A stretch of 64,000 nt of DNA. Source: Pseudomonas sp. S04. Its GTDB lineage: Bacteria; Pseudomonadota; Gammaproteobacteria; Pseudomonadales; Pseudomonadaceae. This document shows, in pieces, positions 3,721 through 35,813 of this stretch (position 1 is its first letter; every line of letters starts with the position of its first letter). The position numbers and the translations under genes were made by a program. Under the pieces are notes generated by a model that did not search any database, was not told the DNA's origin, and saw nothing but the letters and a program-made list of their open reading frames with translations. The DNA lies in contig NZ_CP019427.1 in assembly GCF_009834545.1 (NCBI RefSeq), positions 496,001 through 560,000 of the forward strand, given 5' to 3'.

Positions 3721-5478
3721 GTGGCATTGACGATTCTTGGCCTGTCCGGCGCCCTTAGCCATGATCCTTCCGCAGCGCTGTACATCGACGGCAAGCTGGT
3801 CGCGGCTGCTGAAGAAGAGCGCTTCGTACGCGATAAACATGCAAAGAACCGCATGCCTTACGAATCGGCGAAGTTCTGCTTGGAACAGGCCGGTATCAAA
3901 CCTTCAGACGTTGACGTAGTCGCGATCCCGTTCGCCCCGATCAGCCTGTTCGGCAAGGCCCGCTGGCAGTACGCCAAGCGTTACTGGTACGCCCCGGATC
4001 GCGCACTTGACGCGATCCTGATGGGCAACCGTCGCTACAAGCGCTATCGCAACAAGATCGTCTGGTGCCTGGAGCAACTGGGCTTCGATCCGAAGAAAAT
4101 CAAGATCGAGCCGGTCGAGCACCACTTGGCCCACGCCTCCAGCGCTTATCACTGCTCCGGTTTCAAAGAGAAAACCGCGATCCTGGGTATCGACGGCAAG
4201 GGCGAGTACGCCACGACCTTCTTCGGTTACGGCGAAAACGGCAAGATTCACAAGATCAAGGAATTCTTCGATCCGGACTCCCTCGGCGGCCTGTATGGCG
4301 CGATCACCGAGTTTCTCGGCTTCGACATGCTCGACGGTGAGTTCAAGGTCATGGGCATGGCGCCGTACGGTGACGCCAGCAAATACGATTTCTCGCGCCT
4401 GGCTTCGTTCGAAAACGGCGAGTTGGTGATCAACACCGACTACGCCAACGTCATCGGCCTGCGTCGTTATAAAGAGAAGGGCAAGGGTTACTACTTCTCG
4501 CCGAAGCTGATCGAGTGGCTGGGTCCCAAGCGCGAAGGTGACATCGCCGACGAGCCTTACATCCACTACGCCGCCAGCATTCAAGCGCTGTTCGAAAAAA
4601 TTTCGCTGCAGATGATCGATCACTACCTGGGCGACGTGCTCAAGGAAACCGGCAAGCTGGCCTATGCCGGTGGCTGTGCGTTGAACGTCAAGCTGAACCA
4701 GAAAATCATTGCTCGCGACGACGTCAAAGAGCTGTTTGTGCAGCCTGCATCCGGCGATGCCGGTACCGCAGTTGGCGCTGCTGCCTACGTGTCCCACGCC
4801 CGTGGCGTACCGGTCGAGAAGATGGAACACGTCTACCTCGGCCCCTCGTACAGCAACGAAGACGTGATCGCCGCGTGTGCCCGTCACCCGAGCAAGCCTG
4901 CTTGGCGCAAGCTTGAGAACATGCCGGAAAACATCGCCAAGATCATGGTCGATGGCAACCCGGTAGCCTGGTTCCAGGGGCGCATGGAGTTCGGTCCGCG
5001 TGCCCTTGGTGGTCGTTCGATCATCGGTTGCCCGAGCGCCGTTGGCGTGGCTGACCGGATCAACCACCAGATCAAGTTCCGCGAGCGCTGGAGGCCTTTC
5101 TGCCCGTCGATGCTCGACACCGTGGCGCCGCAGATGATCAAGATCGATCACCCGGCCCCCTTCATGACCTTCACCTTCGAAGTGGCTGAAGAGTGGAAGA
5201 CCCGCGTGCCGGAAGTCGTCCATGAAGACGGCACCTCCCGAGCCCAGGTGCTCAAGCGTGAGTACAACCCACGCTACTACGACATGATGAAAGCCCTGGA
5301 AGTGCTGACCGGCAACGGTGTGTCGCTCAATACCTCGCTCAACCGTCGTGGCGAACCGATGATCTGCTCGCCGACCGACGCGCTGAACATGTTCTTCGGT
5401 TCCGATCTACAGTATTTGATCATGGAAGACATTCTCGTGGTCAAAGACGGCGCGGACGCTTATGACACGCTCGGCTGA
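3721..5478 (+). CDS. wapO: LPS core carbamoyltransferase (NodU/CmcH family)
   Basis: 585 residues, full length for the NodU/CmcH O-carbamoyltransferases. The N-terminal domain is of the Kae1/HSP70-actin type, with the family blocks HHLAHASSAYHCS (about 138-150) and MGMAPYGD. The C-terminal domain has WFQGRMEFGPRALGGRS. The enzyme makes carbamoyl-adenylate from carbamoyl phosphate and ATP and transfers the carbamoyl group to a sugar hydroxyl, in Pseudomonas a core heptose. The GTG start fits the conserved N-terminus MALTILGLSGALSHDPSAAL, and an AGAGG motif lies upstream. The end overlaps the next gene by 17 bases. The symbol is by synteny with PAO1 PA5005. Confidence 0.9.
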   Translation: MALTILGLSGALSHDPSAALYIDGKLVAAAEEERFVRDKHAKNRMPYESAKFCLEQAGIKPSDVDVVAIPFAPISLFGKARWQYAKRYWYAPDRALDAILMGNRRYKRYRNKIVWCLEQLGFDPKKIKIEPVEHHLAHASSAYHCSGFKEKTAILGIDGKGEYATTFFGYGENGKIHKIKEFFDPDSLGGLYGAITEFLGFDMLDGEFKVMGMAPYGDASKYDFSRLASFENGELVINTDYANVIGLRRYKEKGKGYYFSPKLIEWLGPKREGDIADEPYIHYAASIQALFEKISLQMIDHYLGDVLKETGKLAYAGGCALNVKLNQKIIARDDVKELFVQPASGDAGTAVGAAAYVSHARGVPVEKMEHVYLGPSYSNEDVIAACARHPSKPAWRKLENMPENIAKIMVDGNPVAWFQGRMEFGPRALGGRSIIGCPSAVGVADRINHQIKFRERWRPFCPSMLDTVAPQMIKIDHPAPFMTFTFEVAEEWKTRVPEVVHEDGTSRAQVLKREYNPRYYDMMKALEVLTGNGVSLNTSLNRRGEPMICSPTDALNMFFGSDLQYLIMEDILVVKDGADAYDTLG

Positions 5479-6592
5479 GCGCCATGTCCTGCAGTTCTGT
5501 CACGGCTATGACGGGCCGTTCCTGGACTGCGCCCGGCAGTACGCCAGCCTGTTTGCGGGCTCCGGTTATCGTGTGACCACGGTGTTCCTCACCGGGGTGG
5601 CCGATGCCGAAGTCGCAGCCGGCTGCGCGTCTGACGAAGTGCTGTTCATGGAATACAGCTCCAAGGCCATTCGTGGCCTGAAGCTGGGCGCGATTGCCGA
5701 TCTGCGCAAGATCGCCCAGTCGCGCCAGTTCAGTTTCTGTATCGCCCACCGGTTCAAGCCGATCTACATCGCCTTGCTCGCCACGGCGCTGCCGGTGATT
5801 GGCGTGCACCACGCCTTTGGTGACTACCAGCGGCGTACGCGCAAGCTGTTTGCGCAGATTTTCCGCAAGCGTCTGAGCCTGCTCGGGGTCTCTGACGCGG
5901 TGCGCGACGACATGCGCCGCTGCCTGCCGAAATGGCCGGCAGCACGCATTCAAACGCTCTACAACCGTATCGATGTCGACGCCTTGCAGGCCAGCCAGCT
6001 GTCCTTCGCCCAGGCGCGGGAAGAGTTGGGCCTGTCGCCGGATGCCTGGGTGGTCGGCAACGTTGGCCGCCTGCACCCGGACAAGGACCAGGCCACGCTG
6101 CTCCACGGCTTTGCCCAGGCTTTGCCAGGCTTGCCGGTCGATAGCCAACTGGCGATTCTCGGCACCGGCCGCCTGGAGCAGGACCTCAAGGAACTGGCCC
6201 GCGAACTGGGGATCGGCGATCGCGTGTTGTTCCTCGGCCAAGTGCCTGAAGCGCGTCGCTACTTCCGCGCTTTTGATGTGTTTGCCTTGAGCTCCGACCA
6301 TGAACCTTTTGGCATGGTGCTACTCGAAGCCATGGCGGCCGGCGTGCCGTTGTTGGCCACGGCGTGTGGCGGGGCCAAGGAAGTGGTCGAAGGCGTCGGT
6401 ATCCTGTTTCCTCTGGGCGACGCCGAGCACCTGGCGCAAGGGCTGCAACACCTGGCCCGGATGGACCAGCGGGAGCGCCAGTTGTGCGCCGAGCTGATGC
6501 TTGAGCGCCTGCGCCAGCAATTTTCCGATCGCGCGGTACGCGAGGCGTTCTGGCGTCTGCCGCCTGTCATTGATCTGACGACGAGGGCTTGA
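5462..6592 (+). CDS. wapH: LPS core glycosyltransferase, family 4 (WapH-like)
   Basis: 376 residues, GT-B fold. The N-terminal lobe begins LQFCHGYDGPFLDCARQY. The C-terminal lobe carries GNVGRLHPDKD and the nucleotide-sugar signature EPFGMVLLEAMAAGVPLLAT. It is expected to add an outer-core hexose at the cytoplasmic face of the inner membrane. It starts inside the carbamoyltransferase gene (17-base overlap) and its end overlaps the next start by 4 bases. The symbol rests on position (PA5004 in PAO1); the exact sugar is not readable from the sequence. Confidence 0.85.
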   Translation: MTRSAERHVLQFCHGYDGPFLDCARQYASLFAGSGYRVTTVFLTGVADAEVAAGCASDEVLFMEYSSKAIRGLKLGAIADLRKIAQSRQFSFCIAHRFKPIYIALLATALPVIGVHHAFGDYQRRTRKLFAQIFRKRLSLLGVSDAVRDDMRRCLPKWPAARIQTLYNRIDVDALQASQLSFAQAREELGLSPDAWVVGNVGRLHPDKDQATLLHGFAQALPGLPVDSQLAILGTGRLEQDLKELARELGIGDRVLFLGQVPEARRYFRAFDVFALSSDHEPFGMVLLEAMAAGVPLLATACGGAKEVVEGVGILFPLGDAEHLAQGLQHLARMDQRERQLCAELMLERLRQQFSDRAVREAFWRLPPVIDLTTRA

Positions 6593-20904: not shown

Positions 20905-22182
20905 ATGAACAGAACCCTCTATACCGCATTGTTTTACCTGGGGCTGCCATTGGTGGCGATTCGACTGTGGCTGCGCTCGCGCAAGGCGCCGGCCTACGCC
21001 AAGCGTATCGGCGAGCGATTTTCCATCGGCCTGCCACCGATGGCGCCCGGCGGAATCTGGGTGCACGCGGTGTCGGTGGGCGAGAGCATCGCCGCGGCGC
21101 CGATGATTCGTGCGCTGCTGGAACGTTATCCACAGCTGCCGATTACCGTCACCTGCATGACGCCGACCGGCTCGGAGCGAATCCAGGCGTTGTTCGCCAA
21201 TCAACCGCGGATCCAGCACTGCTACCTGCCGTACGACTTGCCTTGTGCCGCCGCGCGTTTTCTCGACCGGGTCCAGCCCAAGCTGGCGGTGATCATGGAA
21301 ACCGAGTTGTGGCCCAACCATATTCACCAATGCGCCAAGCGCGCGATTCCCGTGGCGCTGGCCAACGCCCGGCTCTCCGAACGCTCGGCCAAGGGCTACG
21401 GGCGTTTTCGCCAACTGACGCAGCCGATGCTCGCCGAAATGAGCCTGTTCGCTGTGCAGACCAATGCCGAAGCCGAGCGCTTCCGGGCGCTAGGGGCGCG
21501 GGCGGAAACGGTCGAGGTAACGGGTTCGATCAAGTTCGACCTGAGCATCGACCCGACCTTGCTGCAACGCGCCAGCGATCTGCGTGAGCAATGGCAGGCG
21601 AGCCAGCGACCGGTGTGGATCGCCGCGAGCACCCATGAGGGTGAGGACGAGGTAGTGCTGGCGGCTCATCGGCAGTTGCTCGCCAGCCACCCGGACGCGT
21701 TGCTGATTCTGGTGCCGCGTCACCCGGAACGCTTCAACTCGGTGTTCGAGCTGTGCCAGCAGCAGGGTTTCAACACGGTCCGGCGCTCCAGCGGCGCGCC
21801 GGTCAGCGCCGATACCGCGGTGCTGCTCGGCGACACCATGGGCGAACTGTTGTTTCTCTATGCCCTGGCGGACAGTGCGTTTGTCGGCGGCAGCCTGGTG
21901 CCGAACGGCGGGCATAACCTGCTGGAGCCGGCGGCATTGGCCAAGCCGGTACTCAGTGGCCCGCACCTGTTCAACTTCCTCGAGATCGCGGCGTTGATGC
22001 GCAATGCCAAGGCCCTGCAAGAGGTGGAGGACGCCCACGGGCTGGCGGTGGCGGTGCAGCGCCTGTTCGAACTGCCACGCGATGCGCAGCAAATGGCCGA
22101 GGCGGGATTGACCGTGATGCGCGCCAACCAGGGCGCGTTGCAGCGCTTGCTGGATGGGTTGGGGCGGTTGCTCAAGGGTTGA
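20905..22182 (+). CDS. waaA: Kdo transferase WaaA
   Basis: 425 residues, full length for WaaA/KdtA. It has an N-terminal membrane anchor (about 1-22) and a GT-B fold. GGIWVHAVSVGESIAA holds the catalytic glutamate near residue 60. GGSLVPNGGHNLLEPAALAK lies in the CMP-Kdo side. It transfers Kdo from CMP-Kdo to lipid IVA at the inner membrane. ATG 20905 is chosen because an upstream in-frame ATG lies inside the LysR gene. A REP pair follows the stop. Confidence 0.95.
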   Translation: MNRTLYTALFYLGLPLVAIRLWLRSRKAPAYAKRIGERFSIGLPPMAPGGIWVHAVSVGESIAAAPMIRALLERYPQLPITVTCMTPTGSERIQALFANQPRIQHCYLPYDLPCAAARFLDRVQPKLAVIMETELWPNHIHQCAKRAIPVALANARLSERSAKGYGRFRQLTQPMLAEMSLFAVQTNAEAERFRALGARAETVEVTGSIKFDLSIDPTLLQRASDLREQWQASQRPVWIAASTHEGEDEVVLAAHRQLLASHPDALLILVPRHPERFNSVFELCQQQGFNTVRRSSGAPVSADTAVLLGDTMGELLFLYALADSAFVGGSLVPNGGHNLLEPAALAKPVLSGPHLFNFLEIAALMRNAKALQEVEDAHGLAVAVQRLFELPRDAQQMAEAGLTVMRANQGALQRLLDGLGRLLKG

Positions 22183-22197
22183 TCAATTCACACAACC

Positions 22198-22290
22198 TGT
22201 GGGAGCGAGCCTGCTCGCGATGGCAGCTGCACATTGAAGACCAGTGTTGACTGATCTACCGCTATCGCGAGCAAGCTCGCTCCTACAAGG
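22198..22290. repeat. REP pair (REPIN) after waaA
   Basis: TGTGGGAGCGAGCCTGCTCG and its inverted partner CGAGCAAGCTCGCTCCTACA flank about 45 unrelated bases, forming a long hairpin-able unit. This is the common mobile palindrome of fluorescens-group intergenic regions. It lies between waaA and the orphan tolC fragment. Confidence 0.9.
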
Positions 22291-22304
22291 GTTTGAGTGT
22301 CAGC

Positions 22305-22556
22305 TCAAGGTCGGGCTTTCAACTGCTCGGCCGCAGCCTTGGCCAGGTCCGGTGGCAGGAAGTCCTTGTCCGGGTTGTAGTCGGCCTTGAGGTAGCGTTT
22401 GAGGTCTTGCAGGTCGCCCGGGCTCAGGGTGCCGGCCGCCTGTTTCAGGCGCAGGTTGTCGAGGATGTAGTCGTAGCGGCTGTTGTTGTAGTTGCGCACC
22501 GAGGTGTACAGCTGGCGCTGGGCATCCGATACGTCGACGATGTTTCGCGTGCCCAC
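22305..22556 (-). pseudogene. tolC': Orphan 3' fragment of tolC
   Basis: About 83 codons matching the C-terminus of the intact TolC encoded at 32035-33474, from VGTRNIVDV to AAAEQLKA, with the final residues differing (RP-stop here, NPTQ-stop there). At DNA level 22315-22557 aligns without gaps to 32051-32293. I count 11 mismatches, only 2 of them in the first ~208 bases. There is no ribosome site or plausible start, and upstream sequence is unrelated, so it is a leftover and not a gene. It marks the left border of the vgrG island. Confidence 0.92.
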
Positions 22557-22748
22557 CCGCTCCAGATCACTGCCCCTCTCGTTCGCTGACGCAACTTTCT
22601 GAAAGGCGGAAAGGTCTGACTGTATTCGAAGACCCTTCCGACATTAATCCGTTTCCCTCGTTGATAACGTGCCCGCCAATTTCGCGTGCACAGACCATGG
22701 ACGGTTTGGACACCGCGCTTCATTTCCTCTCTGCTTAAGGAAAAGCGT

Positions 22749-24818
22749 ATGTTCCGGTCGGCCAATACGGCGCACTTCGCGCTGCACATCCCCGCTGTTC
22801 GTAACGATTTCAAAGTGCTCGCCTTTGATGGTGTTGAGGCTATCAGCGCTTCGTACGCGATCCAGGTTGAACTGGTCAGCGAACACCCGGATTTCGATCT
22901 GGAGAGTCTGCTCAGCCAACCTGCCTTTCTCCAGTTCGGTCTTAACGGCGAAGGCCTTCATGGCCGTATCGAAGACGTCTTTGTGGGGCAGGCCGGCAAG
23001 CGCCTGACCCGTTATCACCTGACTCTGGTACCGGCGCTGCACTACTTGCAGTTCAGCCACAATCAGCGGATTTTCCAGAATCTGACGGTGCCGAAAATCA
23101 TCGCTCAGGTGTTCAAGGGCCACGGCATTCAGGCCGATGCCTTTGCCTTCCATGTCAGCACCAGCCCCGAGCGCGAGTACTGCACGCAATACGGGGAAAA
23201 TGACTTCGAGTTCGTCCAGCGCCTGTGCGCCGAGGACGGCATCGCCTGGCATCACCAGCATTCGCCAGACGGTCATCTGCTGGTGTTCACCGACGACCAG
23301 ACCTGGTTCCCCAAACTGGGCGCAACCCCTTATCTACAAGACTCCGGCATGGTGGCCGAGTACCCGGTAGTCAGTCAGTTTTCCATGCGCTTACGCACCC
23401 GCACCAGCACGGTCACGCGCCGGGACTACGACTTTCAACGTCCGAGTCTGCTGCTGGAGAGCCGTTTCACCGCCGAGTTCAGCCCAGAGCTGGAAGACTA
23501 TCGTTATCCGCTGTTGATCGAGAACGAAAAACGCGGCAAACAACTCGCTCGCCAGGCTCTGGAGCGCCATCGTACCGATTACCAGTTGGCCGAGGGCAGC
23601 AGCGATCAACCGTGCCTGCGCAGTGGTCACTTGTTTGAACTGACCGAACACCCACGCAAAACCTGCAACGATTTGTGGCTGTTACTCAGCGTGACGCATT
23701 CTGGAAAACAGCCGCAGTCACTGGAAGAGGCCATCACCAGCGACATCAAACCCGAAGATGGCTTTAGCCAAGGCTATCGCAACTGCTTCCGCGCCATTCC
23801 GTGGGATGTGCACTACCGACCAGCGCTGCCCCCGCGACGATCGGCGCTGGTCAGCCAGACCGCCCGCGTGACCGGACCGGCCGGCGAAGAGATTTATTGC
23901 GACAAGTTTGGTCGTGTCCGTGTCGAGCTGCCTTGGGATCGGGCCGAGTTCAACAGTGAAAGAAGCAGTTGCTGGCTAAGGGTTTCATCCAGTTGGGCCG
24001 GGGAAAATTTTGGTTCGGTGACCATCCCGCGCATCGGCATGGAAGTTGTCGTCACCTACCTGGAAGGCGACCCCGACCAACCGTTGATCACCGGGTGTGT
24101 GGCCAACACCGTCACCTCCGTACCGTATTCGTTGCCGGAGCACAAAACCAAAACCGTCTTGCGCAGCCACAGTTCCCCGCACACCGGCGGTTACAACGAA
24201 CTGTCGCTGGAAGACCGCGCCGGGCAGGAAAAAATCTACCTGCGTGCCCAGCGCGACTTTGAACAGCTGATCCTCAACGACAGCGACACCAAGATCGGTA
24301 ATGACCGCCGCGAACAGATCACCCACGACAGCCACAGCCTGATCAGCAACGACCGTTTCGAACAGGTGGACAACCACAGCGCCAGCCTGATCAAGGGCGA
24401 CGAGTTGCACACCACCCAAGGCGTGCGCAACACGGTGATCGGCGGCAACGAACTGATCACCATCACCGGTAACAGCAGCACGACAGCAGGCGGCACGTTG
24501 GTGATTCAGGCCGGTTCGCAAGCCCACGTCAGCGCTGCCAACGTGGTGATCGATGCGGGGATGAGCCTGACGCTCACGGCTGGAGGTCACCACATCGTGA
24601 TCAACGCCGGCGGGATTTTCAGCAGCGTGGCCATCGTCGAGGGTGGGGCTCCGGTGACGGGTGTGCCTGTTCAACCTGCGCTTTCATTGGTTCCGGTGGC
24701 TGCGCAGGCACTGATTGCGCCATCCCTGGCTGCGCAAAAACTGGCATTGACTCAGGCGGCGCAGCAGGCCTCAGCGATCTGTGCCGTGTGTCAAAAACTG
24801 GCGGAGATGATGGCATGA
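22749..24818 (+). CDS. vgrG: Type VI secretion spike protein VgrG
   Basis: 689 residues from ATG 22749 (AAGGA 8 bases upstream; the frame is open further upstream without a ribosome site). The gp27-like base spans about 1-360. The OB-fold segment near 370-400 has GEEIYCDKFGRVRVELPWDR. A gp5-like beta-helix repeat region is at about 505-620. The Ala-rich tail has no added effector domain. It trimerises as the tip of the T6SS tube and carries the effector encoded downstream. The start codon of the DUF4123 gene overlaps its stop. No T6SS sheath, baseplate or Hcp genes are in the window, so this is an orphan vgrG cluster. Confidence 0.95.
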   Translation: MFRSANTAHFALHIPAVRNDFKVLAFDGVEAISASYAIQVELVSEHPDFDLESLLSQPAFLQFGLNGEGLHGRIEDVFVGQAGKRLTRYHLTLVPALHYLQFSHNQRIFQNLTVPKIIAQVFKGHGIQADAFAFHVSTSPEREYCTQYGENDFEFVQRLCAEDGIAWHHQHSPDGHLLVFTDDQTWFPKLGATPYLQDSGMVAEYPVVSQFSMRLRTRTSTVTRRDYDFQRPSLLLESRFTAEFSPELEDYRYPLLIENEKRGKQLARQALERHRTDYQLAEGSSDQPCLRSGHLFELTEHPRKTCNDLWLLLSVTHSGKQPQSLEEAITSDIKPEDGFSQGYRNCFRAIPWDVHYRPALPPRRSALVSQTARVTGPAGEEIYCDKFGRVRVELPWDRAEFNSERSSCWLRVSSSWAGENFGSVTIPRIGMEVVVTYLEGDPDQPLITGCVANTVTSVPYSLPEHKTKTVLRSHSSPHTGGYNELSLEDRAGQEKIYLRAQRDFEQLILNDSDTKIGNDRREQITHDSHSLISNDRFEQVDNHSASLIKGDELHTTQGVRNTVIGGNELITITGNSSTTAGGTLVIQAGSQAHVSAANVVIDAGMSLTLTAGGHHIVINAGGIFSSVAIVEGGAPVTGVPVQPALSLVPVAAQALIAPSLAAQKLALTQAAQQASAICAVCQKLAEMMA

Positions 24819-25648
24819 ATCAGGCTTACCTGCTGCTGGATCGCGCCCAGATTGAACATCTGCCTGAGCGTCTGTTGGAGCTGGGGAGTACAACGTTTCA
24901 ATCGCTTTACCAGAACACCGCTTATGGCCCATTGGAGGAAGTCGGGCCGGTACTGGTGCCTGTTTCCCCTAATAGCCCGCTGGCCCATACCTTTTTTCGG
25001 GACTGGAGTGCGACGGGTGGCCTCTGGCTGGAGTCAGAGGCGCAAGAAGCGGTTGTACTCGAACATTTACGCAGCCTGATTCACGTCCGGGTCGAGGGGG
25101 ATGTCACGGTTTTGTTCCGTTACCACGACCCGCGCATCGCGGCATTGTGGCTAGCGCGGTTACCCGCCTGCGAGCGTGATCGCTTGATGGGACCTGTGCG
25201 ACTGATCCGGCTCCCGGAGTTGGATATCCATCAAGAAAACCCGGATCAACCCGCTGCACCGTATGCGCATGAGCCTTGGTTGTTCCTGTCTGCGGAGCAA
25301 CTGGAGCACTTGGGCACCGCCCAACGGCAGCGCTTCGCTCAACAGTTGATCGAACACTGCCAGCAATACTTTTCCGAATACCTGCAAGGGCTGGACGACT
25401 TTGCATTGCAACAGTGGGCGTCTCATTGCCAGCACCGTGCCGGGCGTCACGGTTACAGCGCCATCGATGAAGTCTTGCTCTGGGCGCGCTTCCACGCTGC
25501 GCTGGGTACTGACTTTCCCGATGCTTCGGATCACGACGCTTACCGAAGCATATTGGCCGAGCCCGGTGTATCGCCCGAGCAACGGCTGGAAAACTTGAAT
25601 GCCGAACTGACGCGTCAGCAGCTCACCGACAAGGCGTTCGGTCTATGA
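24815..25648 (+). CDS. DUF4123 effector-loading adaptor (Tap/Tec type)
   Basis: 277 residues from ATG 24815. The DUF4123 core is visible at about 10-130: a variable start, then FRYHDPRIAALWLARLPACE and GPVRLIRLPE. Proteins of this family are T6SS chaperones that load a specific effector onto the cognate VgrG and are not themselves secreted. Position between vgrG and the effector gene, with 4-base overlaps on both sides, fits this role. Confidence 0.9.
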   Translation: MNQAYLLLDRAQIEHLPERLLELGSTTFQSLYQNTAYGPLEEVGPVLVPVSPNSPLAHTFFRDWSATGGLWLESEAQEAVVLEHLRSLIHVRVEGDVTVLFRYHDPRIAALWLARLPACERDRLMGPVRLIRLPELDIHQENPDQPAAPYAHEPWLFLSAEQLEHLGTAQRQRFAQQLIEHCQQYFSEYLQGLDDFALQQWASHCQHRAGRHGYSAIDEVLLWARFHAALGTDFPDASDHDAYRSILAEPGVSPEQRLENLNAELTRQQLTDKAFGL

Positions 25649-28600
25649 GCGCAGAAAAACTGGCAATGGTCGACCGAGCCGCTCAGGCCGAACGCGCCGC
25701 CAAGGCTCAGCCTCACGTCGACATCAACAGCCCGATGGCGCCGTGCCCAGCCAGCCAATCCGAGCTGTTCGTCGTCCCCGTGCGTTATGCGCTGGCTGAA
25801 GAAAAGGCCGACAGTCCTTGCTGCATTCCCGGCGTGACCACGCAAAGTCGTCCCATGGCGGCGCGTCGCTTGCGGGCCGGATTTGTTTATCTGTGGCAGG
25901 ACAAAGGCCCCCTCAAACGGTATGCCGTCTCGCCGAATGGTCTGCTCAAAGAGCAAGTGCTCGACGCCGATGCGAGCCCGGTGCTCGACGGCACATTGAC
26001 GGGCCTGACCCTGGAAAAAACCCACGACGCGTGGATGCTCTACAGCGAGTTCCCATTGAACCCCGAGCACTGTCAATCGCTGAGCGACAGCAGCACCAAA
26101 CGTCGTGCGCACATGCGCCATGTGGCCTTGCGCACCGTGGCCAATGAACTGCAAGCCGAGCATTGCCCGCCGCTGGAAAAAGCCGTTGAGGTCATGGCCG
26201 AACTCATCCCCGGCACCTTCGCCCGGTCCATGAAAGCGGATCAGCAACGGGGCGCCGAGGATACCGACACGCTGGGCGCGGCCGTGATGAAAGACCCGAT
26301 CCCGGCCAACATCAAGGCGTACACCGACGCCATGCATCGCGCGCGTGAGCGCGAAAATGTCATCGCCCAACACCCCGAGGTCAACGATCAGCCGCCGGGC
26401 GAATGGAGCGCCGAACCGTGGGACGGTCAGGGCACTCAGGATTGGCTGGACAGCGCCAAGGCACAAACCGAGGGTCTGTTCGCCGTCTTCGCTTGCCTGG
26501 ACGACGATCTGGGCGTGCTGCGTGACATCAACCACGAGCAGGAATGGGTCGAGGCGGGACATGAAAAATGGCTGGGGGATAACAACCTACGCCTGAGCAT
26601 CGGTGGATTCGTGCGTAGTCTGATCACTGAAGATGGCGCCGAACTGGCCGGGTCCATCAGCTACCGCTACAAGGGGCGTGACATCACCCTCACGCCCGAA
26701 CAGGGCCAGGTCATGCTCGACACCCAGCATCGGCTGGATGAGGAACTCAAGGCTGAAACCCAGGCCCGTCAATACGGTGGTCAGCCCACCCAGGCCGAAG
26801 CCGCCGCCCGCGATTCACGTATCGCAGCCATCGTCGCCCCGGTACGGGCCTTTATTCCGGCGGACTTGTACAACGAAGTGGAATTCGTCGTCCGCGAATA
26901 CCGCGCCGAAAAGCACGCCAACCTCAACAACCATCTCTTCAGTGCCAAGGTCGGCGAATACATCGACCTCGAGGCGATGAACACCTGGTTCGCGCAGACC
27001 GCAGCGGCGCACTACCAACAGATCGAACAGCGTCACACCGCGTTGTTTGCCGACCGGGGCATGTACCTCAACCGCTCCCTCAGCGGCACCTGGTTTGTCG
27101 ATTACTCCGACCTGGACACTCGCCACTGGCTGACCGAATTGGCCACCGGCTGCCTGACCGCCCAATGCATCCGCGCCCAGGGCGCAGAGCAATACGCCGA
27201 CTACGTGCGAGCCGCGGATGATGGTGCCCTGAAACAACTGTTCAACGCCTGGACGCCCTCGATCGATGCGGCCGTTAACAACACCTCTCGACTAGGTGAG
27301 CTGATGGCCGCACTGGCTTCCGACAACATCAGCGCCACCCATCAGGCATTGGCGCCGTTGAGCGCAGCGGTTCTGGAAGACATCGCGGCCATGGCCCGAG
27401 ACGCGAGCAGCCAATGGAGTGTGTTGGTCAACCGGCTGGCGGCTTCGTTGTTGTTGCTCAAGGGGGGCAACACCTTCAGCGGCTCATGGATGGGCGTCTT
27501 TGTCGCTGCGCGCCTGGGCAGCGACACGCGTTTGCAGTTCGTCACCGAGGCCGGCCGGCAGGTGTGGAAGTTGTTGGGGCAACAGGCCGAAGCACTGGGC
27601 GACTGGGCGAAGGTGACCGGGAAGGCTATTGGCGCGGGGCGGGTGGAGCGGATTGTTAATTCGCCTGTTGTGGCCAACAGCGGCGGGGTAGTGCCGTTGG
27701 CTGCGTTGTTGTTGAACGTGCTGAATGCGCATAACTATTTGAGCAAGGCCGGGGTGTTGGAGGGGATGGACAGTCGGCGGGTTAATGACACGGTTTCGGC
27801 GACGCTGTATGCGGCGGCGGCTTTGGTTGCGGTGGTTGATAATCAGGTGCGGATGGGCTTGGGGGTCAAAGAAATTGGGAAGGGACGAACAATGGCCCCG
27901 ACTCTGACCCTGTTTGGTGGGGTGATTGGAGCACTTTCCACTGGTGCAGCAATAAACGAATTCCAATCCTTGGAAAAACAATTGGAAAACACCCAAAACC
28001 GAGTCGACCCGTGGCTGCAGATGCGCCAGATCGTGGTTGGTGGTCAAGTAGCGGCCTTCGGCGCCCAAGCGCTGTTAGGGTTTGGCTACACCGCCCGCGC
28101 CTTGGCAGGCTCAATAACCGCCGAAGCCGCCATCTTGCGTTACACGCTGTACATGGGGCCGTTGAACTGGCTCATTCTCATGCTGGGTGTTCTGCACCTG
28201 ATCACCACGTTCTTGCAGCAAACCCCACTGCAAAACTTCTTGAACTTCTGCTGCTGGTCAAAAGAGCGGGCGATCGATCTGGAACCTATCGCTCCCAAAG
28301 CCCAGCAGGACGAACTCGACCGGCTGTACTTCATCCTTTATGCACCTCGGGTCAGTATGCAAAGCAGCTCGGTACTGGGTAGTGGCAATGGCCCATCCGG
28401 ACTGACTTCCGTCAGTTCCATTAATGCTTTGACCATCGATTTGCCAGGGGCGGAGCCGGGTAGTGCCTACCTGGAACTGAGCATGGTCGGTGACCCGTTG
28501 GATACCCAGGCCTCCCGCGATCTGATCAAAAACAGCCCGTTCAACCACTACAAAGCACCGCGTCCCTGGCGAGACATGACACCTCATTGGTTGTCCAGCA

Positions 28601-28917
28601 GCATCTGTCAGTGGATACCGTTCAAGGAAGGTCAGGGCTTACGCTTGAGTGGCCCCTTCAAGGAGCTGAAGAACGTATTGGGCACGACACCCAGTACTGT
28701 TTCGCTCCGATTGCGTTATCGCACGCCATTGACCGCCATGCTCGGTGCTCGCATCTTTATCGGCGGTGAGCGAGGGCTTGCCTTTACCCTGAATGACACC
28801 ACCGACGTGATAGCGCTGTGGGCCGACCCGACACCTGAACTGGATCGTGTACCGAGTTACCCGCTCGGCGAGGACCACCCCGGTGCCATTTACCTGCAAC
28901 CCAAGGACAAACGATGA
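25645..28917 (+). CDS. VasX-like type VI secretion membrane-targeting effector
   Basis: 1090 residues, close to V. cholerae VasX in length. The N-terminal ~150 residues match the VasX N-terminal region type (Cys-rich CCIPGV, then RRLRAGFVYLWQDKG). The middle (about 150-600) is soluble and acidic. The last third has several hydrophobic segments, near 677-695, 716-735, 750-770, 797-822 and 832-857, as in colicin-like pore formers. It is probably loaded by the DUF4123 adaptor onto VgrG and inserts into the inner membrane of rival cells. Codon use changes near 27640-27890 (TTG leucines, GTT/GCG-rich) and again after it, suggesting a mosaic C-terminal toxin part. Toxicity is inferred from the family. 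Confidence 0.85.
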   Translation: MSAEKLAMVDRAAQAERAAKAQPHVDINSPMAPCPASQSELFVVPVRYALAEEKADSPCCIPGVTTQSRPMAARRLRAGFVYLWQDKGPLKRYAVSPNGLLKEQVLDADASPVLDGTLTGLTLEKTHDAWMLYSEFPLNPEHCQSLSDSSTKRRAHMRHVALRTVANELQAEHCPPLEKAVEVMAELIPGTFARSMKADQQRGAEDTDTLGAAVMKDPIPANIKAYTDAMHRARERENVIAQHPEVNDQPPGEWSAEPWDGQGTQDWLDSAKAQTEGLFAVFACLDDDLGVLRDINHEQEWVEAGHEKWLGDNNLRLSIGGFVRSLITEDGAELAGSISYRYKGRDITLTPEQGQVMLDTQHRLDEELKAETQARQYGGQPTQAEAAARDSRIAAIVAPVRAFIPADLYNEVEFVVREYRAEKHANLNNHLFSAKVGEYIDLEAMNTWFAQTAAAHYQQIEQRHTALFADRGMYLNRSLSGTWFVDYSDLDTRHWLTELATGCLTAQCIRAQGAEQYADYVRAADDGALKQLFNAWTPSIDAAVNNTSRLGELMAALASDNISATHQALAPLSAAVLEDIAAMARDASSQWSVLVNRLAASLLLLKGGNTFSGSWMGVFVAARLGSDTRLQFVTEAGRQVWKLLGQQAEALGDWAKVTGKAIGAGRVERIVNSPVVANSGGVVPLAALLLNVLNAHNYLSKAGVLEGMDSRRVNDTVSATLYAAAALVAVVDNQVRMGLGVKEIGKGRTMAPTLTLFGGVIGALSTGAAINEFQSLEKQLENTQNRVDPWLQMRQIVVGGQVAAFGAQALLGFGYTARALAGSITAEAAILRYTLYMGPLNWLILMLGVLHLITTFLQQTPLQNFLNFCCWSKERAIDLEPIAPKAQQDELDRLYFILYAPRVSMQSSSVLGSGNGPSGLTSVSSINALTIDLPGAEPGSAYLELSMVGDPLDTQASRDLIKNSPFNHYKAPRPWRDMTPHWLSSSICQWIPFKEGQGLRLSGPFKELKNVLGTTPSTVSLRLRYRTPLTAMLGARIFIGGERGLAFTLNDTTDVIALWADPTPELDRVPSYPLGEDHPGAIYLQPKDKR

Positions 28918-29828
28918 GCACGCCACCGGCAGGCACCACGAAAAAACGGACGTTTTCGCGCAATGACTACCTGGCGCCGCTCCCCATCCCTACCGGAGAG
29001 AAACCGCAGGACGTGCTCAACACCATTTGGCGCAAGAACGAGGTGTTTTTGGATATTGGCAACTACAGCATCGGCTCGGCGGTGATGGTGATGTGGCCGA
29101 CGCTGATGGTGTTTGTGCTTATGGGTTACATCACTCCTGAGCCTGGAATGATCTGGATTGGGGCATTAATTATCATTGGTATCCCTTCAATGATTTTGAT
29201 CCAAGGTCTATTTCGGGAAGTGCCCCTACCCGTGCGTTTCAACCGCCAACGCCGAGAAGTCTGCGTACCACGCGACGATGGCGAGTACTGGATCGTCCCT
29301 TGGGAAACCGTGACGGCTGCCGCCACACAGCACTCGTCGGTCAGCCAAGCCGGTAAAGCCACGATGGGCTTATTAATCATCGGTTTCGAAAACCCGGATC
29401 CGCTGGCTAAGGAAGACAACAAGCATTTCTCCCTAGGCTTCAACTGTGGCGGCGACACCACGGCAATGGCGTTGTGGGAGTGCATGCGCAGTTATATGGA
29501 AGTTAGTCCGGAGGCTGTCCCTGAAAGTCGAGTTGGCGTTGCCCCCTACGAAGAAACGCAAATTGGTTCGATCATCACCGACTTGCGCAAGGGCAATTTG
29601 TTAGGCGTTTTATGGGGAATATTTTGCATTACGATTTTGGGGACGTACTTGGCAGAGAAGCTTCAGGATTTGAAACTTTCTTATCCGCCAGACCTGCCCT
29701 ATCCCGACATCATCGAATGGTCAAAACCCTTGCCTCCCGAGCAGTGGGCCAAACGCTCCCCGGAACTAGAAGCCGCCATCGCCAAACGCGAGGCTGAACT
29801 AGCCACGCAAGCCAGGGACGCGGCATGA
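28914..29828 (+). CDS. Putative T6SS immunity membrane protein, paralogue 1
   Basis: 304 residues. The N-terminus is shared with the next two genes (MSTPPAGTTKKRTFSRNDYL). Two hydrophobic segments lie at about 45-95, then a conserved soluble core (VRFNRQRREVCVPRDDG, FSLGFNCGGDTTAMALWECM, about 105-195). A third hydrophobic segment is near 225-245, before a conserved tail (YPDIIEWSKPLPPEQW). It directly follows the pore-forming-type effector with a 4-base overlap, the usual place for an immunity gene, and is a membrane protein as expected for protection against a membrane toxin. I believe the family is listed as DUF6708, from memory. Immunity is inferred. Confidence 0.7.
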   Translation: MSTPPAGTTKKRTFSRNDYLAPLPIPTGEKPQDVLNTIWRKNEVFLDIGNYSIGSAVMVMWPTLMVFVLMGYITPEPGMIWIGALIIIGIPSMILIQGLFREVPLPVRFNRQRREVCVPRDDGEYWIVPWETVTAAATQHSSVSQAGKATMGLLIIGFENPDPLAKEDNKHFSLGFNCGGDTTAMALWECMRSYMEVSPEAVPESRVGVAPYEETQIGSIITDLRKGNLLGVLWGIFCITILGTYLAEKLQDLKLSYPPDLPYPDIIEWSKPLPPEQWAKRSPELEAAIAKREAELATQARDAA

Positions 29829-30763
29829 GCACGCCACCGGCAGGTACCACGAAAAAGCGGATATTTTCGCGCAATGACTACCTGGCGCCGTTGCCTATCC
29901 CTACCGGCGAAAAACCGCAGGACGTGCTCAACATCATTTGGCGCAAGAACGACGTGTTTCTCGACATTGGTAACTACAGCATCGGCTCTGCGGTGATGGT
30001 GATGTGGCCGGGAGTGATGGTGGTTTTAGCCATGTCTTTCTTCACTCGAAATTTCGACCCTGATTTCAGCCGCGAAGTGTTGATCCTGGGCGCAGTTATT
30101 ATGAGCATCCCCGTGCTGTTTTTAATCCAAGGGCTATTCCGCGATGTGCCCCCACCCGTGCGCTTCAACCGCCAGCGCCGAGAGGTCTGCGTACCACGCG
30201 ACGACGGCCAGTACTGGATCGTGCCCTGGGAAAGCGTGACGGCCGCCGCCACACAGCACTCGTCGGTGAGCCAGGCTGGTAAAACCACGATGGGTTTACT
30301 GATCGTAGGTTTCGAAAACCCCGACCCGCAGGCCAAGGAAGACAACAAGCATTTTTCGTTGGGCTTCAATTGTGGCGGCGGCACCACGGCGATGGCGTTA
30401 TGGGAGTGCATGCGCAGTTACATGGAAATTGGGCCGGAAGCCGCACCGGAGGCCGCAGCACTTAACTCAGGCGCGAACCTGCGTTACTACATCGATTACA
30501 TGAAAGATAAAGCCAGAGAGCGTGGGTGGTTTTTGACACTGCTGTGGGAAGGGGTATTCGGCGTATTTATTTTTAATGCTCCTCTCGCTACCTATCTGCA
30601 AAGAAAGAAACTGTATCCGCCACCAGACCTTACCTATCCCGACATCATCGAATGGTCAAAACCTTTACCTCCCGAGCAGTGGGCCAAACGTTCCCCGGAA
30701 CTGGAATCCGCCATCACCAAACGCGAGGCTGAACTAGCCACGCAAGCCAGGGACGCGGCATGA
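29825..30763 (+). CDS. Putative T6SS immunity membrane protein, paralogue 2
   Basis: 312 residues, the same architecture as paralogue 1. The first ~60 residues, the core at about 115-210 and the last ~45 residues are almost identical. Differences concentrate in the two-helix hairpin (about 60-105, with a charged NFDPDFSREV loop) and in the segment before and including the third helix (about 210-265, RYYIDYMKDKARERGWFLTL). That pattern suggests that the membrane-embedded surfaces are under diversifying change. It overlaps both neighbours by 4 bases. Confidence 0.7.
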   Translation: MSTPPAGTTKKRIFSRNDYLAPLPIPTGEKPQDVLNIIWRKNDVFLDIGNYSIGSAVMVMWPGVMVVLAMSFFTRNFDPDFSREVLILGAVIMSIPVLFLIQGLFRDVPPPVRFNRQRREVCVPRDDGQYWIVPWESVTAAATQHSSVSQAGKTTMGLLIVGFENPDPQAKEDNKHFSLGFNCGGGTTAMALWECMRSYMEIGPEAAPEAAALNSGANLRYYIDYMKDKARERGWFLTLLWEGVFGVFIFNAPLATYLQRKKLYPPPDLTYPDIIEWSKPLPPEQWAKRSPELESAITKREAELATQARDAA

Positions 30764-31725
30764 GCACGCCACCGGCAGGTACCACGAAAAAGCGGATTTT
30801 TTCGCGTAATGATTACCTGGCGCCGTTGCCCATCCCTACGGGTAGAAAGCCCTCTGATGTGCTCAATATCATCTGGCGCAAGAACGAGGTATTTATCGAT
30901 ATTGGCAGCTATAGCATCGGTTCGGCGGTGATGGTGATGTGGCCAATGGTGATGCTGTTTTTAGCCATGGCTTATTTCACACGCAATATCGCCTCTGGGG
31001 ACTTTAGCCAAGACATATTGATAGCAGGCTCAATCATCACAGGTGTTCCAGCGCTAATGTTGATCCAGGGACTGTTCCGAAATGTGCCACTTCCCGTGCG
31101 CTTCAATCGCCAACGCCGCGAAGTCTGCGTACCCCGCGACGACGGCAAGTACTGGATCGTCCCTTGGGAAACGGTCACCGCCACCGCCACCGAGCAATCG
31201 TCGGTCAGTCAGGCCGGTAAAGCCACGATGGGGCTGCTGGTCATCGGTTTCGAAAACCCTGACCCGTTGGCCAAGAAAGACAACAAGCATTTCTCCCTAG
31301 GCTTCAACTGTGGTGGCGGCACCACGGCCATGGCGTTGTGGGAGTGCATGCGCAGTTACATGGAGATTGGACCGGAGGCTGTTGAGGATCAAACAGCACG
31401 TTTCGACAGGTCTAAAGGGATATGGGCGACCTATCTGGACGATCTTGTAAAAGCCGCAAAATTGAGAGGCTGGCCTTTAACCATCTTGTGGGAAGGTTTC
31501 TGCGGGACCTTCATCTTCAACACGCTACTGATCGACGTCCTTGAGCGATGGAAACTGAATCCGCCGCCAGACCTGCCCTATCCCGACATCATCGAATGGT
31601 CAAAACCCTTGCCTCCCGAGCAGTGGGCTAACCGCTCCTCGGAACTGGTAGCCGCCATCACCAAACGCAACGCTGAACTGGCCGCGCACGCTATCACCCA
31701 TTCGTTTCGCTGCGAACGGCAGTAG
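30760..31725 (+). CDS. Putative T6SS immunity membrane protein, paralogue 3
   Basis: 321 residues, third copy of the array. The N-terminal block and central core are conserved, and the two variable segments again differ (NIASGDFSQD loop; TYLDDLVKAAKLRGWPLT before helix 3). Its C-terminal tail departs from the shared ending after ELAAHA and runs into ITHSFRCERQ. This suggests that the original end was replaced by recombination with the decayed sequence that follows. Last intact gene of the island operon. Confidence 0.68.
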   Translation: MSTPPAGTTKKRIFSRNDYLAPLPIPTGRKPSDVLNIIWRKNEVFIDIGSYSIGSAVMVMWPMVMLFLAMAYFTRNIASGDFSQDILIAGSIITGVPALMLIQGLFRNVPLPVRFNRQRREVCVPRDDGKYWIVPWETVTATATEQSSVSQAGKATMGLLVIGFENPDPLAKKDNKHFSLGFNCGGGTTAMALWECMRSYMEIGPEAVEDQTARFDRSKGIWATYLDDLVKAAKLRGWPLTILWEGFCGTFIFNTLLIDVLERWKLNPPPDLPYPDIIEWSKPLPPEQWANRSSELVAAITKRNAELAAHAITHSFRCERQ

Positions 31726-31739
31726 CTCTTCTTTTATGC

Positions 31740-31981
31740 ACAGGAAGATTTACCTATGAAATACGCGAACTCCACAACTGCGTCAGCGAACACCTCAACG
31801 CCGTCCTCAAATACCTCAACCTGATGGCCTGCACCAGCCTTCCCCACTACGCCGAGAACGACATCAACACCGTCACCAACATCGCCCGGATCTGGTCCAG
31901 GATGTGAGTGATGTGTTTCGCGTGATTGAGCAGCGCGGGTTTGATACGCCAAAAGAACAGCGATTGATTTTTACGCAATAA
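31740..31981 (+). pseudogene. Decayed, frameshifted gene remnant at the island's right end
   Basis: Protein-like reading in two frames. Frame one from about 31740 reads YEIRELHNCVSEHLNAVLKY near 31755 and on to a stop at 31905-31907. Frame two continues from about 31892 with QDVSDVFRVIEQRGFDTPKE to a stop at 31979-31981. A one-frame shift near 31885-31900 breaks the gene, and no start codon with a ribosome site is present. This is probably the 3' end of a former island gene of unknown function. It fills most of the 309-base stretch between the third paralogue and tolC. Confidence 0.55.
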
Positions 31982-32009
31982 AAACCCGCATTTTTCCTGC
32001 GGGTTTTTT
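31981..32009. terminator. Bidirectional terminator between the island operon and tolC
   Basis: AAAACCCGCA-tttttcc-TGCGGGTTTTTT: an 8-10 bp GC-rich stem with a T-run on the plus strand and TTTTATT on the minus strand. It can end both the island operon and the convergent tolC transcript. Confidence 0.88.
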
Positions 32010-32034
32010 AACGCCGTTACAGTACCGTTGTTTT

Positions 32035-33474
32035 TTACTGCGTCGGATTTGCTTTCAACTGCTCGGCCGCAGCCTTGGCCAGGTCCGGTGGTAGGAAGTC
32101 CTTGTCCGGGTTGTAGTCGGCCTTGAGGTAGCGCTTGAGGTCTTGCAGGTCGCCCGGGCTCAGGGTGCCGGCCGCCTGTTTCAGGCGCAGGTTGTCGAGG
32201 ATGTAGTCGTAGCGGCTGTTGTTGTAGTTGCGCACCGAGGTGTACAGCTGGCGCTGGGCGTCGAGCACGTCGACGATATTGCGGGTCCCCACCTGATAAC
32301 CGATTTCAGTGGCTTCCACCGCGCTCTGGTTGGAGATGATCGACTGGCGGCGCGCTTGCACCTGCTCGACATCGCTGTTCACCGCGCGGTGCAGGTTGCG
32401 GGTGTTCTCCACCACCTGGCGGCGCAGCGATTCACGTTGTTGCTCGCTCTGGTCCAGGCGTGCATACGACTCGCGGACCTGGGAGTTGATCAGGCCGCCG
32501 CTGTAGATCGGAATGTTCAGCTGCAAGCCGACGGTGGTCTGGGTCACGTCACCACTGTAGGGCTGGCCAAAGGCACTAGGGTTGCTGAAGCCGAAGGCGT
32601 CGTTGTCACCCTTCTTGTACTGCGCCACGGCATCGACGGTCGGGGCGTGCCCGGCCTTGCGTTGCTTGAGGGTCTCTTCGGCCGCGCTGACCGCGTAGTT
32701 GCTGGCCAGCAGGTTGAGGTTCTGCTGGGCTGCGGTGTCGACCCAGGCCTTGGCGTCATTGGGCGCCGGCGGCAGGATCGGCAAGGTGTGGACGATGCCC
32801 TGGATCGAGTTGTACTGCCGGTTGGTCAGGGTGATCAGGGCCTCGAACGCGTCATCCACCTGTTGCTGGGCGAGGATCCGGTTGGCGCGGGCAGTGTCAT
32901 AGCTGGCTTGCGACTGCAGCACGTCGGTCTTGTCCGAGAGGCCGACGTCGAAGCGCTCGTTGGACTGGTCCAACTGGCGCTTGAAGGCGGCTTCTTCGGC
33001 TTTGGTCGAGGCCAGGTTGTCCTGGGTGCGCAGCACGTTGAAGTAGGTCTGGGCGGTCTGCAGGATCAGGTCCTGCTCGGTGGCCGAGAGCTGCAACGCG
33101 GCTTGTTCGTTGACATCCTTGGCGGCCTGGAACTGGAACCAGCGGTCGGCGCGGAACAGCGGCTGGGCCAGGGTTGCCTGGTAGAAATGCGTGTTGCGGT
33201 TGGCAATGGCCGCCGGGGAGTCGATGTCGGTACGCACATTGGCGATCTCCGCACCACCGGAGAGGTTCGGCAGCAGGCCGGCGCGCGACTGGGGCACGAC
33301 TTCCTTTTGCGCGCCGTATTGGGCACGGGCCGCCGCGAGGTCGGCGTTGTTGTCGACTGCCTCCTGGTAGACGCTGACCAGGTCGGTCTTGGTCGACAGG
33401 GGCGTGTCTGCTGCCCAGGCCATTCCATTGGACGCACAAGACACGGCGAGAGCCAGTGAGAGTTTGCGCAGCAT
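32035..33474 (-). CDS. tolC: TolC family outer-membrane channel
   Basis: 479 residues with a cleavable signal peptide (about 1-21, ending MAWA). Two TolC repeats have the usual coiled-coil helices (QAALQLSATEQDLILQTAQT; LRRQVVENTRNLHRAVNSDV). It is the outer-membrane exit duct for RND efflux and type I secretion systems (OpmH type, PA4974 position). There is no lipobox. Its last ~82 codons are duplicated as an orphan fragment at 22305, so the current 3' end may have come with the vgrG island. It is divergent from thiC. Confidence 0.95.
   Translation of the reverse strand: MLRKLSLALAVSCASNGMAWAADTPLSTKTDLVSVYQEAVDNNADLAAARAQYGAQKEVVPQSRAGLLPNLSGGAEIANVRTDIDSPAAIANRNTHFYQATLAQPLFRADRWFQFQAAKDVNEQAALQLSATEQDLILQTAQTYFNVLRTQDNLASTKAEEAAFKRQLDQSNERFDVGLSDKTDVLQSQASYDTARANRILAQQQVDDAFEALITLTNRQYNSIQGIVHTLPILPPAPNDAKAWVDTAAQQNLNLLASNYAVSAAEETLKQRKAGHAPTVDAVAQYKKGDNDAFGFSNPSAFGQPYSGDVTQTTVGLQLNIPIYSGGLINSQVRESYARLDQSEQQRESLRRQVVENTRNLHRAVNSDVEQVQARRQSIISNQSAVEATEIGYQVGTRNIVDVLDAQRQLYTSVRNYNNSRYDYILDNLRLKQAAGTLSPGDLQDLKRYLKADYNPDKDFLPPDLAKAAAEQLKANPTQ
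32051..32293. repeat. Right copy of the 243-bp tolC 3'-end direct repeat
   Basis: Gap-free match to 22315-22557 in the same orientation. Mismatches cluster in the last 35 bases, and only 2 lie in the first ~208. The two copies bracket the 9.5-kb island. Confidence 0.92.
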
Positions 33475-33672
33475 GAGGCGATCCCTAGAATTGAAAATGC
33501 GACAAGAAATAGAGCGCCAAGCTACGGCGCGGGCCCGTCAGCGTCAAGGCGTGGCATGGCGTAGCGAGTGTAGTTGTGGTGACCTGGGGCAACAATCCTG
33601 CAATTACGCCATTCATCATGCTGTTTAATCCGGGGTTGGCGTTCTTGGGTGGTTATGTCTAGACTGGCCGGG
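33475..33672. promoter_or_regulatory. Divergent tolC/thiC promoter region
   Basis: 198 bases with no coding potential between the tolC start and the riboswitch. A weak thiC promoter candidate is TTGGCG (33636) with 17 bases to CTAGAC (33659), just before the aptamer. No convincing tolC promoter was identified by eye. Confidence 0.35.

Positions 33673-35813
<2,141 letters not shown>

What the first reader, a model, noticed from the sequence alone, without database searches (positions are those of the whole stretch)
22305..32293. vgrG effector island inserted at the 3' end of tolC, with a duplicated tolC end
Seen directly: 22315-22557 and 32051-32293 are gap-free direct repeats of 243 bp, the last part of tolC. 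The right copy belongs to full-length tolC, the left is an orphan beside waaA. Everything between them is a T6SS vgrG-adaptor-effector-immunity operon. Inference: the island arrived carrying its own tolC 3' end. That end took over the gene and displaced the native end to the waaA side, in the way genomic islands reuse tRNA 3' ends. No integrase or IS is present, so homologous recombination on tolC is the likely route. A protein-gene 3' end as landing site for vgrG islands would be noteworthy.
Basis: partly seen in the sequence, partly recalled or inferred. Interest (0 to 1): 0.8.

Follow-up and report, generated by a model that had tools for sequence, protein, structure and literature searches.

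The report
T6SS toxin island beside duplicated tolC end
A cluster of genes for a bacterial toxin-injection tip, its toxin and putative immunity proteins sits between two housekeeping genes, waaA and tolC, and a copied, patchwork end of tolC beside it looks like the scar of its arrival by homologous recombination.

Summary
In detail: 22315-22557 and 32051-32293 are gap-free direct repeats (11 of 243 differ), the last part of tolC. Between them lies a vgrG, DUF4123, VasX-type effector and three DUF6708-like gene operon. The closest relative sampled (G251) has an empty waaA-tolC interval, and its tolC end matches the left orphan, so the left copy is the native end; the right copy ends in a tail that G251 lacks. 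Foreign tolC at both inner ends fits a single-crossover-like insertion of DNA carrying a tolC 3' end better than plain end replacement. The general landing place is the waaA-tolC interval: five other genomes hold this kind of operon there (two inferred across contig breaks), none with a tolC duplication; in 141 of 148 relatives compared the genes are adjacent. P. fluorescens FW300-N2E3 carries the operon 2 Mb from tolC with a 59-nt piece of its own tolC beside the vgrG leader. vgrG islands moving by homologous recombination are known; this scar is a new variant.

The parts
20905..22182 (+). waaA, left flanking core gene
   Evidence: ORF; within 634 nt of tolC in 141 of 148 relatives compared
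22183..22314 (.). native waaA-tolC spacer with the end of the orphan; 22278-22314 align with G251 at 92%, the rest does not
22315..22523 (-). orphan tolC 3' end, recipient-type part (2 of 209 differ from G251)
22524..22557 (-). orphan tolC 3' end, foreign allele (9 of 34 differ from G251, 2 of 34 from ANT_H12B and from G232)
22558..22739 (+). joint and vgrG leader; leader matched in 23 of 397 other genomes; the joint itself in none
22740..24818 (+). vgrG (TssI)
   Evidence: TIGR03361 610 bits, PF05954
24815..25648 (+). DUF4123 adaptor/chaperone
   Evidence: PF13503 2.8e-25
25645..28917 (+). VasX-type effector, 1090 aa
   Evidence: PF20249 VasX_N 79.9 bits; NF041559 82.6 bits, under its 150-bit cut-off
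28914..29828 (+). DUF6708-like gene 1, putative immunity
   Evidence: PF20455 21.7 bits, under cut-off 27
29825..30763 (+). DUF6708-like gene 2, putative immunity
   Evidence: PF20455 29.3 bits, over cut-off
30760..31725 (+). DUF6708-like gene 3; its last codons run into the degenerate right end
   Evidence: PF20455 21.9 bits, under cut-off
31726..32010 (+). broken small ORF (internal deletion and frameshift) with its terminator
32011..32056 (-). tolC-downstream spacer and last codons of tolC of another lineage's type (KANPTQ*)
32035..33474 (-). intact tolC, recipient-type apart from its extreme 3' end (96.5% to G251 upstream of the repeat)
32051..32293 (-). right copy of the 243-nt repeat

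Best explanation
A T6SS auxiliary module (vgrG, adaptor, VasX-type effector, DUF6708-like genes) entered an empty waaA-tolC interval by RecA-type homologous recombination anchored in the last ~250 bp of tolC. The incoming DNA already carried tolC sequence of another lineage on both sides of the module, most simply because it was a circle (or end-to-end molecule) in which one foreign tolC 3' end bridged the module's ends. Integration by one crossover, with about 190 nt converted to the recipient's sequence, duplicated the tolC end: the native end stayed beside waaA as an orphan, and tolC is now native sequence with foreign last codons and downstream spacer. Shown: the empty relative, the native-type left end, a right tail unlike the relative's, the foreign inner left 34 nt, the module at this interval in other genomes. 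Inferred: the circular or end-joined form, the order of steps, RecA, and that both foreign pieces came from one donor.
For: Left copy vs G251: 2 of 209 outer but 9 of 34 inner mismatches (Fisher p=3.4e-7). Inner 34 nt closest to ANT_H12B (2 mismatches, best of 35 alleles aligned; G251 ranks 32 of 35) and G232 (2 mismatches); the best hits outside G000 in a 398-genome search are G087 (= ANT_H12B) and G232 at 93%. Right tail and stop differ from G251 and from the left copy and match G005. Recipient-type sequence on both sides of the insert. G251 empty and without the effector. Module in the same interval in G207, G346 and H1h, and by contig ends in G058 and G375. N2E3: 59-nt tolC piece within a few nt of the leader, 58 of 59 identical to its own tolC, 2.03 Mb away. 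No integrase match in the six island ORFs.
Against: No genome among 397 others showed the same joint and no circle was seen. The inner left piece is most like ANT_H12B/G232, the right tail most like G005 over only 21 nt, so one donor is not shown; ANT_H12B, G232, G005 and N2E3 have empty intervals. 34 nt is short, and 2 of the 9 inner differences match neither donor-like allele. Both outer copies are closer to G251 (2 of 209 differ) than tolC upstream is (41 of 1181), so this stretch may have had a further exchange.
Confidence: 0.5

Rival explanations
1. Homology-facilitated illegitimate recombination: linear incoming DNA paired by homology at its tolC end on the right, and its left end (vgrG leader) was joined without homology into the recipient's tolC, duplicating the native end.
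For: Proposed or reported for T6SS effector genes (passages of PMC5361080 and PMC11751169); left joint not seen elsewhere; native-type left end.
Against: The 34 nt next to the joint are another lineage's tolC allele, not the recipient's, so the leader was not joined directly to recipient tolC unless a second event followed.
Confidence: 0.25
2. Ready-made import: the fragment-island-tolC structure formed in another species and was passed on by ordinary homologous recombination in the flanks, then partly converted to local sequence.
For: Foreign tolC on both inner ends.
Against: Orphan fragment seen only in G000 among 398 genomes at E<=1e-12; 5 other occupied genomes lack it; a plain double crossover would not leave recipient sequence on both sides.
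Confidence: 0.12
3. Internal rearrangement: the island was already at the interval, and a tandem duplication of island plus tolC end followed by loss of one island copy left the orphan.
For: The module occurs in the interval without duplication in other genomes.
Against: The left end carries the empty-site sequence of G251 rather than the tail found on the right.
Confidence: 0.08
4. Site-specific or transposition-like insertion into tolC with a target duplication.
For: Direct repeats flank the island.
Against: No recombinase match in the island ORFs, a very long repeat, copies that differ in a patchwork way, and no such joint elsewhere.
Confidence: 0.03

Closest known systems
vgrG/effector islands of Pseudomonas aeruginosa gained and lost at fixed loci (Nat Commun 2025, PMC11751169; passages seen)
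   Same: vgrG block between non-T6SS core genes, recurrent at one locus, for several islands no transposase, homologous recombination in the flanks proposed; homology-facilitated illegitimate recombination reported for effector swaps
   Different: For those islands no conserved breakpoints were detected; here allele switches mark them, inside the duplicated 3' end of a housekeeping gene
Sequential displacement of T6SS effector-immunity modules in Vibrio cholerae (Sci Rep 2017, PMC5361080; passages seen)
   Same: Recombination adds a module and pushes older genes aside; homologous and illegitimate joining proposed, no integrase known
   Different: There immunity genes inside T6SS clusters are kept behind; here the displaced end belongs to an unrelated housekeeping gene
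Aux3 T6SS cluster of V. cholerae (Nat Commun 2020, PMC7721734; abstract and outline seen)
   Same: A T6SS module that can be mobile between flanking sites
   Different: Aux3 moves by site-specific recombination at phage-like att sites; no such gene was found here
Integrase islands at 3' ends of protein genes, e.g. SGI1 at trmE, phage 21 at icd (recalled, from no call)
   Same: Incoming DNA supplies a new gene end
   Different: They use an integrase and a short att site; here long homology and no integrase match

Membership tests
T6SS auxiliary (orphan) vgrG module | vgrG with adaptor, effector and putative immunity genes in one run | tested here: met
T6SS auxiliary (orphan) vgrG module | Away from the structural cluster, with a T6SS elsewhere in the genome | tested here: met
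   Single VipB match at C1:1504994, about 0.98 Mb away
VasX / BTH_I2691 T6SS effectors | VasX N-terminal region over Pfam cut-off | tested here: met
   79.9 vs 27 bits
VasX / BTH_I2691 T6SS effectors | NCBIfam NF041559 cut-off | tested here: not met
   82.6 vs 150 bits
DUF6708 family (putative immunity) | PF20455 gathering score | tested here: inconclusive
   1 of 3 genes over 27 bits, the others 21.7 and 21.9
DUF6708 family (putative immunity) | Protects against the neighbouring effector | not testable with these tools
   needs experiment
Integrase-driven genomic island at a gene 3' end | Integrase or recombinase gene in the island | tested here: not met
   six island ORFs scanned
Integrase-driven genomic island at a gene 3' end | Repeated gene end in other carriers at the same point | tested here: not met
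   5 of 5 other occupied genomes show no tolC duplication; two of these are read across contig breaks
Insertion by homologous recombination in flanking core genes | Allele switches between recipient and donor type at the insert's edges | tested here: met
Insertion by homologous recombination in flanking core genes | Dependence on RecA | not testable with these tools
   needs experiment

The most novel reading that the evidence does not exclude
The 3' end of tolC works as a portable homology address for this module family: modules leave the waaA-tolC interval as circles or fragments with a piece of tolC joined to the vgrG leader, and re-enter other cells at tolC through host RecA, an integrase-free counterpart of an att site. 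Two different tolC-leader joints (window, about 253 nt from the end of the orphan's stop codon; N2E3, about 150 nt from the tolC stop) would be two such events.
Probability: 0.25. Interest if true: 0.7.

Novelty: new variant of a known kind. Interest (0 to 1): 0.45.

Why it matters
How vgrG toxin modules without integrases move between chromosomes is mostly inferred from presence and absence. Here allele switches inside a housekeeping gene mark where recipient and foreign DNA meet, so competing mechanisms make different, checkable predictions. The duplication also predicts reversible loss of the island with an intact tolC left behind.

Tried and rejected
Rejected: a TolC paralogue as source of the orphan. 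Second matches in the 50 other genomes re-searched are full-length-frame relatives at 55-83% protein identity, apart from odd second copies in G170 (86%) and a split tolC in G183; the orphan's protein is 98% identical to G251's tolC end. Rejected: a shared joint elsewhere; (398 genomes, row list cut, two candidates scored per genome) no row outside G000 goes more than 6 nt past 22557. Rejected: ANT_H12B's left flank as a tolC-spacer remnant (no significant match). A perfect 13-nt inverted repeat (22581-22593 and about 31779-31791) was considered as island ends and dropped: the leader side is not conserved. Plasmid search of 21000-33500: no match. Rfam on 21000-34500: only a TPP riboswitch.

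Site history is not settled: on the VasX tree (25 rows, 6 labelled as in the interval, 2 of these by contig inference) the label needs 5 changes, at least 4 forced by well-supported branches, but 156 of 500 shuffles do as well; on the VgrG tree (16 rows, 4 labelled) it needs 2, with 13 of 500 shuffles as low. Several arrivals or departures are likely, their number is open. Left out: from the allele count 2 of 37 loci (L046, L063: region not 243 nt); from the VasX tree L047 and from the VgrG tree 10 of 26 rows, by length; L087 was not given to the script. I could not judge the interval in the roughly 250 genus genomes whose tolC place was not listed.
Full report
Observation. The 243-nt direct repeat is real, gap-free and 95% identical. 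In the single-contig 6.1-Mb genome the two copies are the only strong matches to the tolC end; two others have E of about 0.6. The right copy ends an intact 479-aa tolC; the left is an 83-codon orphan beside waaA. Between them are vgrG, DUF4123, a VasX-type effector of 1090 aa and three DUF6708-like genes (two of the three DUF6708 scores are under the cut-off), then a broken copy of a small ORF with its terminator.

What the interval looks like elsewhere. One search covered 398 genomes of the genus (395 with a match); its list of places was cut. For the 148 genomes other than G000 whose main tolC place was listed, I compared tolC and waaA places (computed): 141 of 148 have the two genes 5-634 nt apart (median 126), 2 are 7.5 and 9.6 kb apart, 5 are on different contigs. 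The 2 distant ones (G346, G207) hold the same kind of operon. Of the 5 split ones, G058 and G375 have the vgrG leader just past waaA at one contig end and DUF6708-like genes before tolC on another contig (G375 with the effector too; G058's effector lies on a third contig). G040 has what looks like an insertion sequence (label recalled) after tolC at a contig end; G095 and G294 end in repeat-like sequence, so their intervals are unread. A separate search by effector protein in genome contigs (22 loci) added Pseudomonas sp. H1h at the interval. So 5 other genomes are occupied, with the same kind of operon and no tolC duplication; for H1h the cargo was the search key, so only the other 4 speak on cargo. 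The orphan fragment was seen only in G000 among 398 at E<=1e-12; shorter pieces would be missed at that limit.

Allele patchwork. G251, the closest relative by tolC end and waaA end, is empty. Its tolC end (KARP*) and the 37 nt that adjoin the repeat match the left copy; the rest of the spacer does not align. Against G251 the left copy has 2 mismatches in the outer 209 nt and 9 in the inner 34 (Fisher p=3.4e-7). Those 34 nt best match ANT_H12B (2 mismatches, best of 35 alleles aligned) and G232 (2; G135 has 3). In the 398-genome search the best hits outside G000 are G087 and G232 at 93%, and no listed row outside G000 goes more than 6 nt past the joint at 22557. The left copy shares 7 of its 9 inner differences with both of those alleles. 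The right copy is recipient-type (3 of 243 differ from G251), but its last codons, stop and spacer are of the kind seen in G005 (KANPTQ*; 20 of 21 nt). The two copies differ at 2 of 209 outer sites, against 41 of 1181 between tolC upstream of the repeat and G251, so the duplication is probably younger than that split; but both copies are also unusually close to G251 there, which may mean a further exchange.

N2E3. In P. fluorescens FW300-N2E3 the same kind of operon lies 2.03 Mb from tolC. A 59-nt tolC piece, 58 of 59 identical to that strain's own tolC and about 88% or less to the other tolC loci held, lies within a few nt of the vgrG leader match, in the same orientation as the window's orphan. 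That strain's tolC-waaA interval is empty. A chance origin of such a piece from tolC is unlikely, so the module family probably has a recurring connection with tolC ends; how is inferred. Of 20 loci checked upstream of the leader or vgrG start, only N2E3 showed a clear tolC piece.

Mechanism. Tolc sequence of another lineage at the inner ends of both copies, with recipient sequence outside on both sides, is what one-crossover integration of a circle with one tolC 3' end would leave, if the paired region was largely converted to recipient sequence. One-sided homologous plus illegitimate joining explains the duplication but not the foreign 34 nt. The two foreign pieces resemble different sampled genomes, so a single donor is not shown.

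Relation to the literature. Homologous recombination through non-T6SS flanking genes and homology-facilitated illegitimate recombination are already described for T6SS effector genes (PMC11751169 and PMC5361080, passages). In the listings that I saw (titles and openings of abstracts, some lists cut at 12-15 rows) none described vgrG islands at waaA-tolC or a duplicated tolC end; full texts were not read for this. I therefore call it a new variant of a known kind.

Noticed in passing
window 31726-32010; L034-L036, L042, L045, L050, L051, L068: Small ORF family (about 95 aa, contains FATDYPVLLIDSDAPLRELHNCVSERL) with no Pfam or NCBIfam match. A 361-nt query over it and its terminator matched 139 of 398 genomes at E<=0.001, 1-3 matches each, some weak. 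It lies at the right end of the operon in L042, L045 and L068 and is broken in the window.
   Followed up: partly
L068 14238-15481, L048 6510-6932, L072, L079, L082: Leftover VasX 3' ends each next to a further DUF6708-like gene, as in sequential displacement of effectors.
   Followed up: no
window 28914-31725: Three tandem DUF6708-like genes, 81-88% alike at DNA level in long stretches.
   Followed up: no
L046 (G183) 3103-3350: The tolC 3' end is split over two frames (apparent frameshift) in this genome.
   Followed up: no
L022 (G170) 5304-6235: Second, N-terminally truncated tolC copy (residues 164-477) with no waaA nearby, about 90% identical to the main one.
   Followed up: partly
L058 (G040) contig end: Sequence that looks like an insertion sequence (label recalled) after tolC at the same interval.
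   Followed up: no
L068 16426-17127: In N2E3 the island's right end lies against a convergent gene that reads as superoxide dismutase (name recalled, no family scan).
   Followed up: no
window 33670-33775: TPP riboswitch upstream of thiC.
   Followed up: no
L084 7086-9171: vgrG of the ANT_H12B island reads in two overlapping frames.
   Followed up: no
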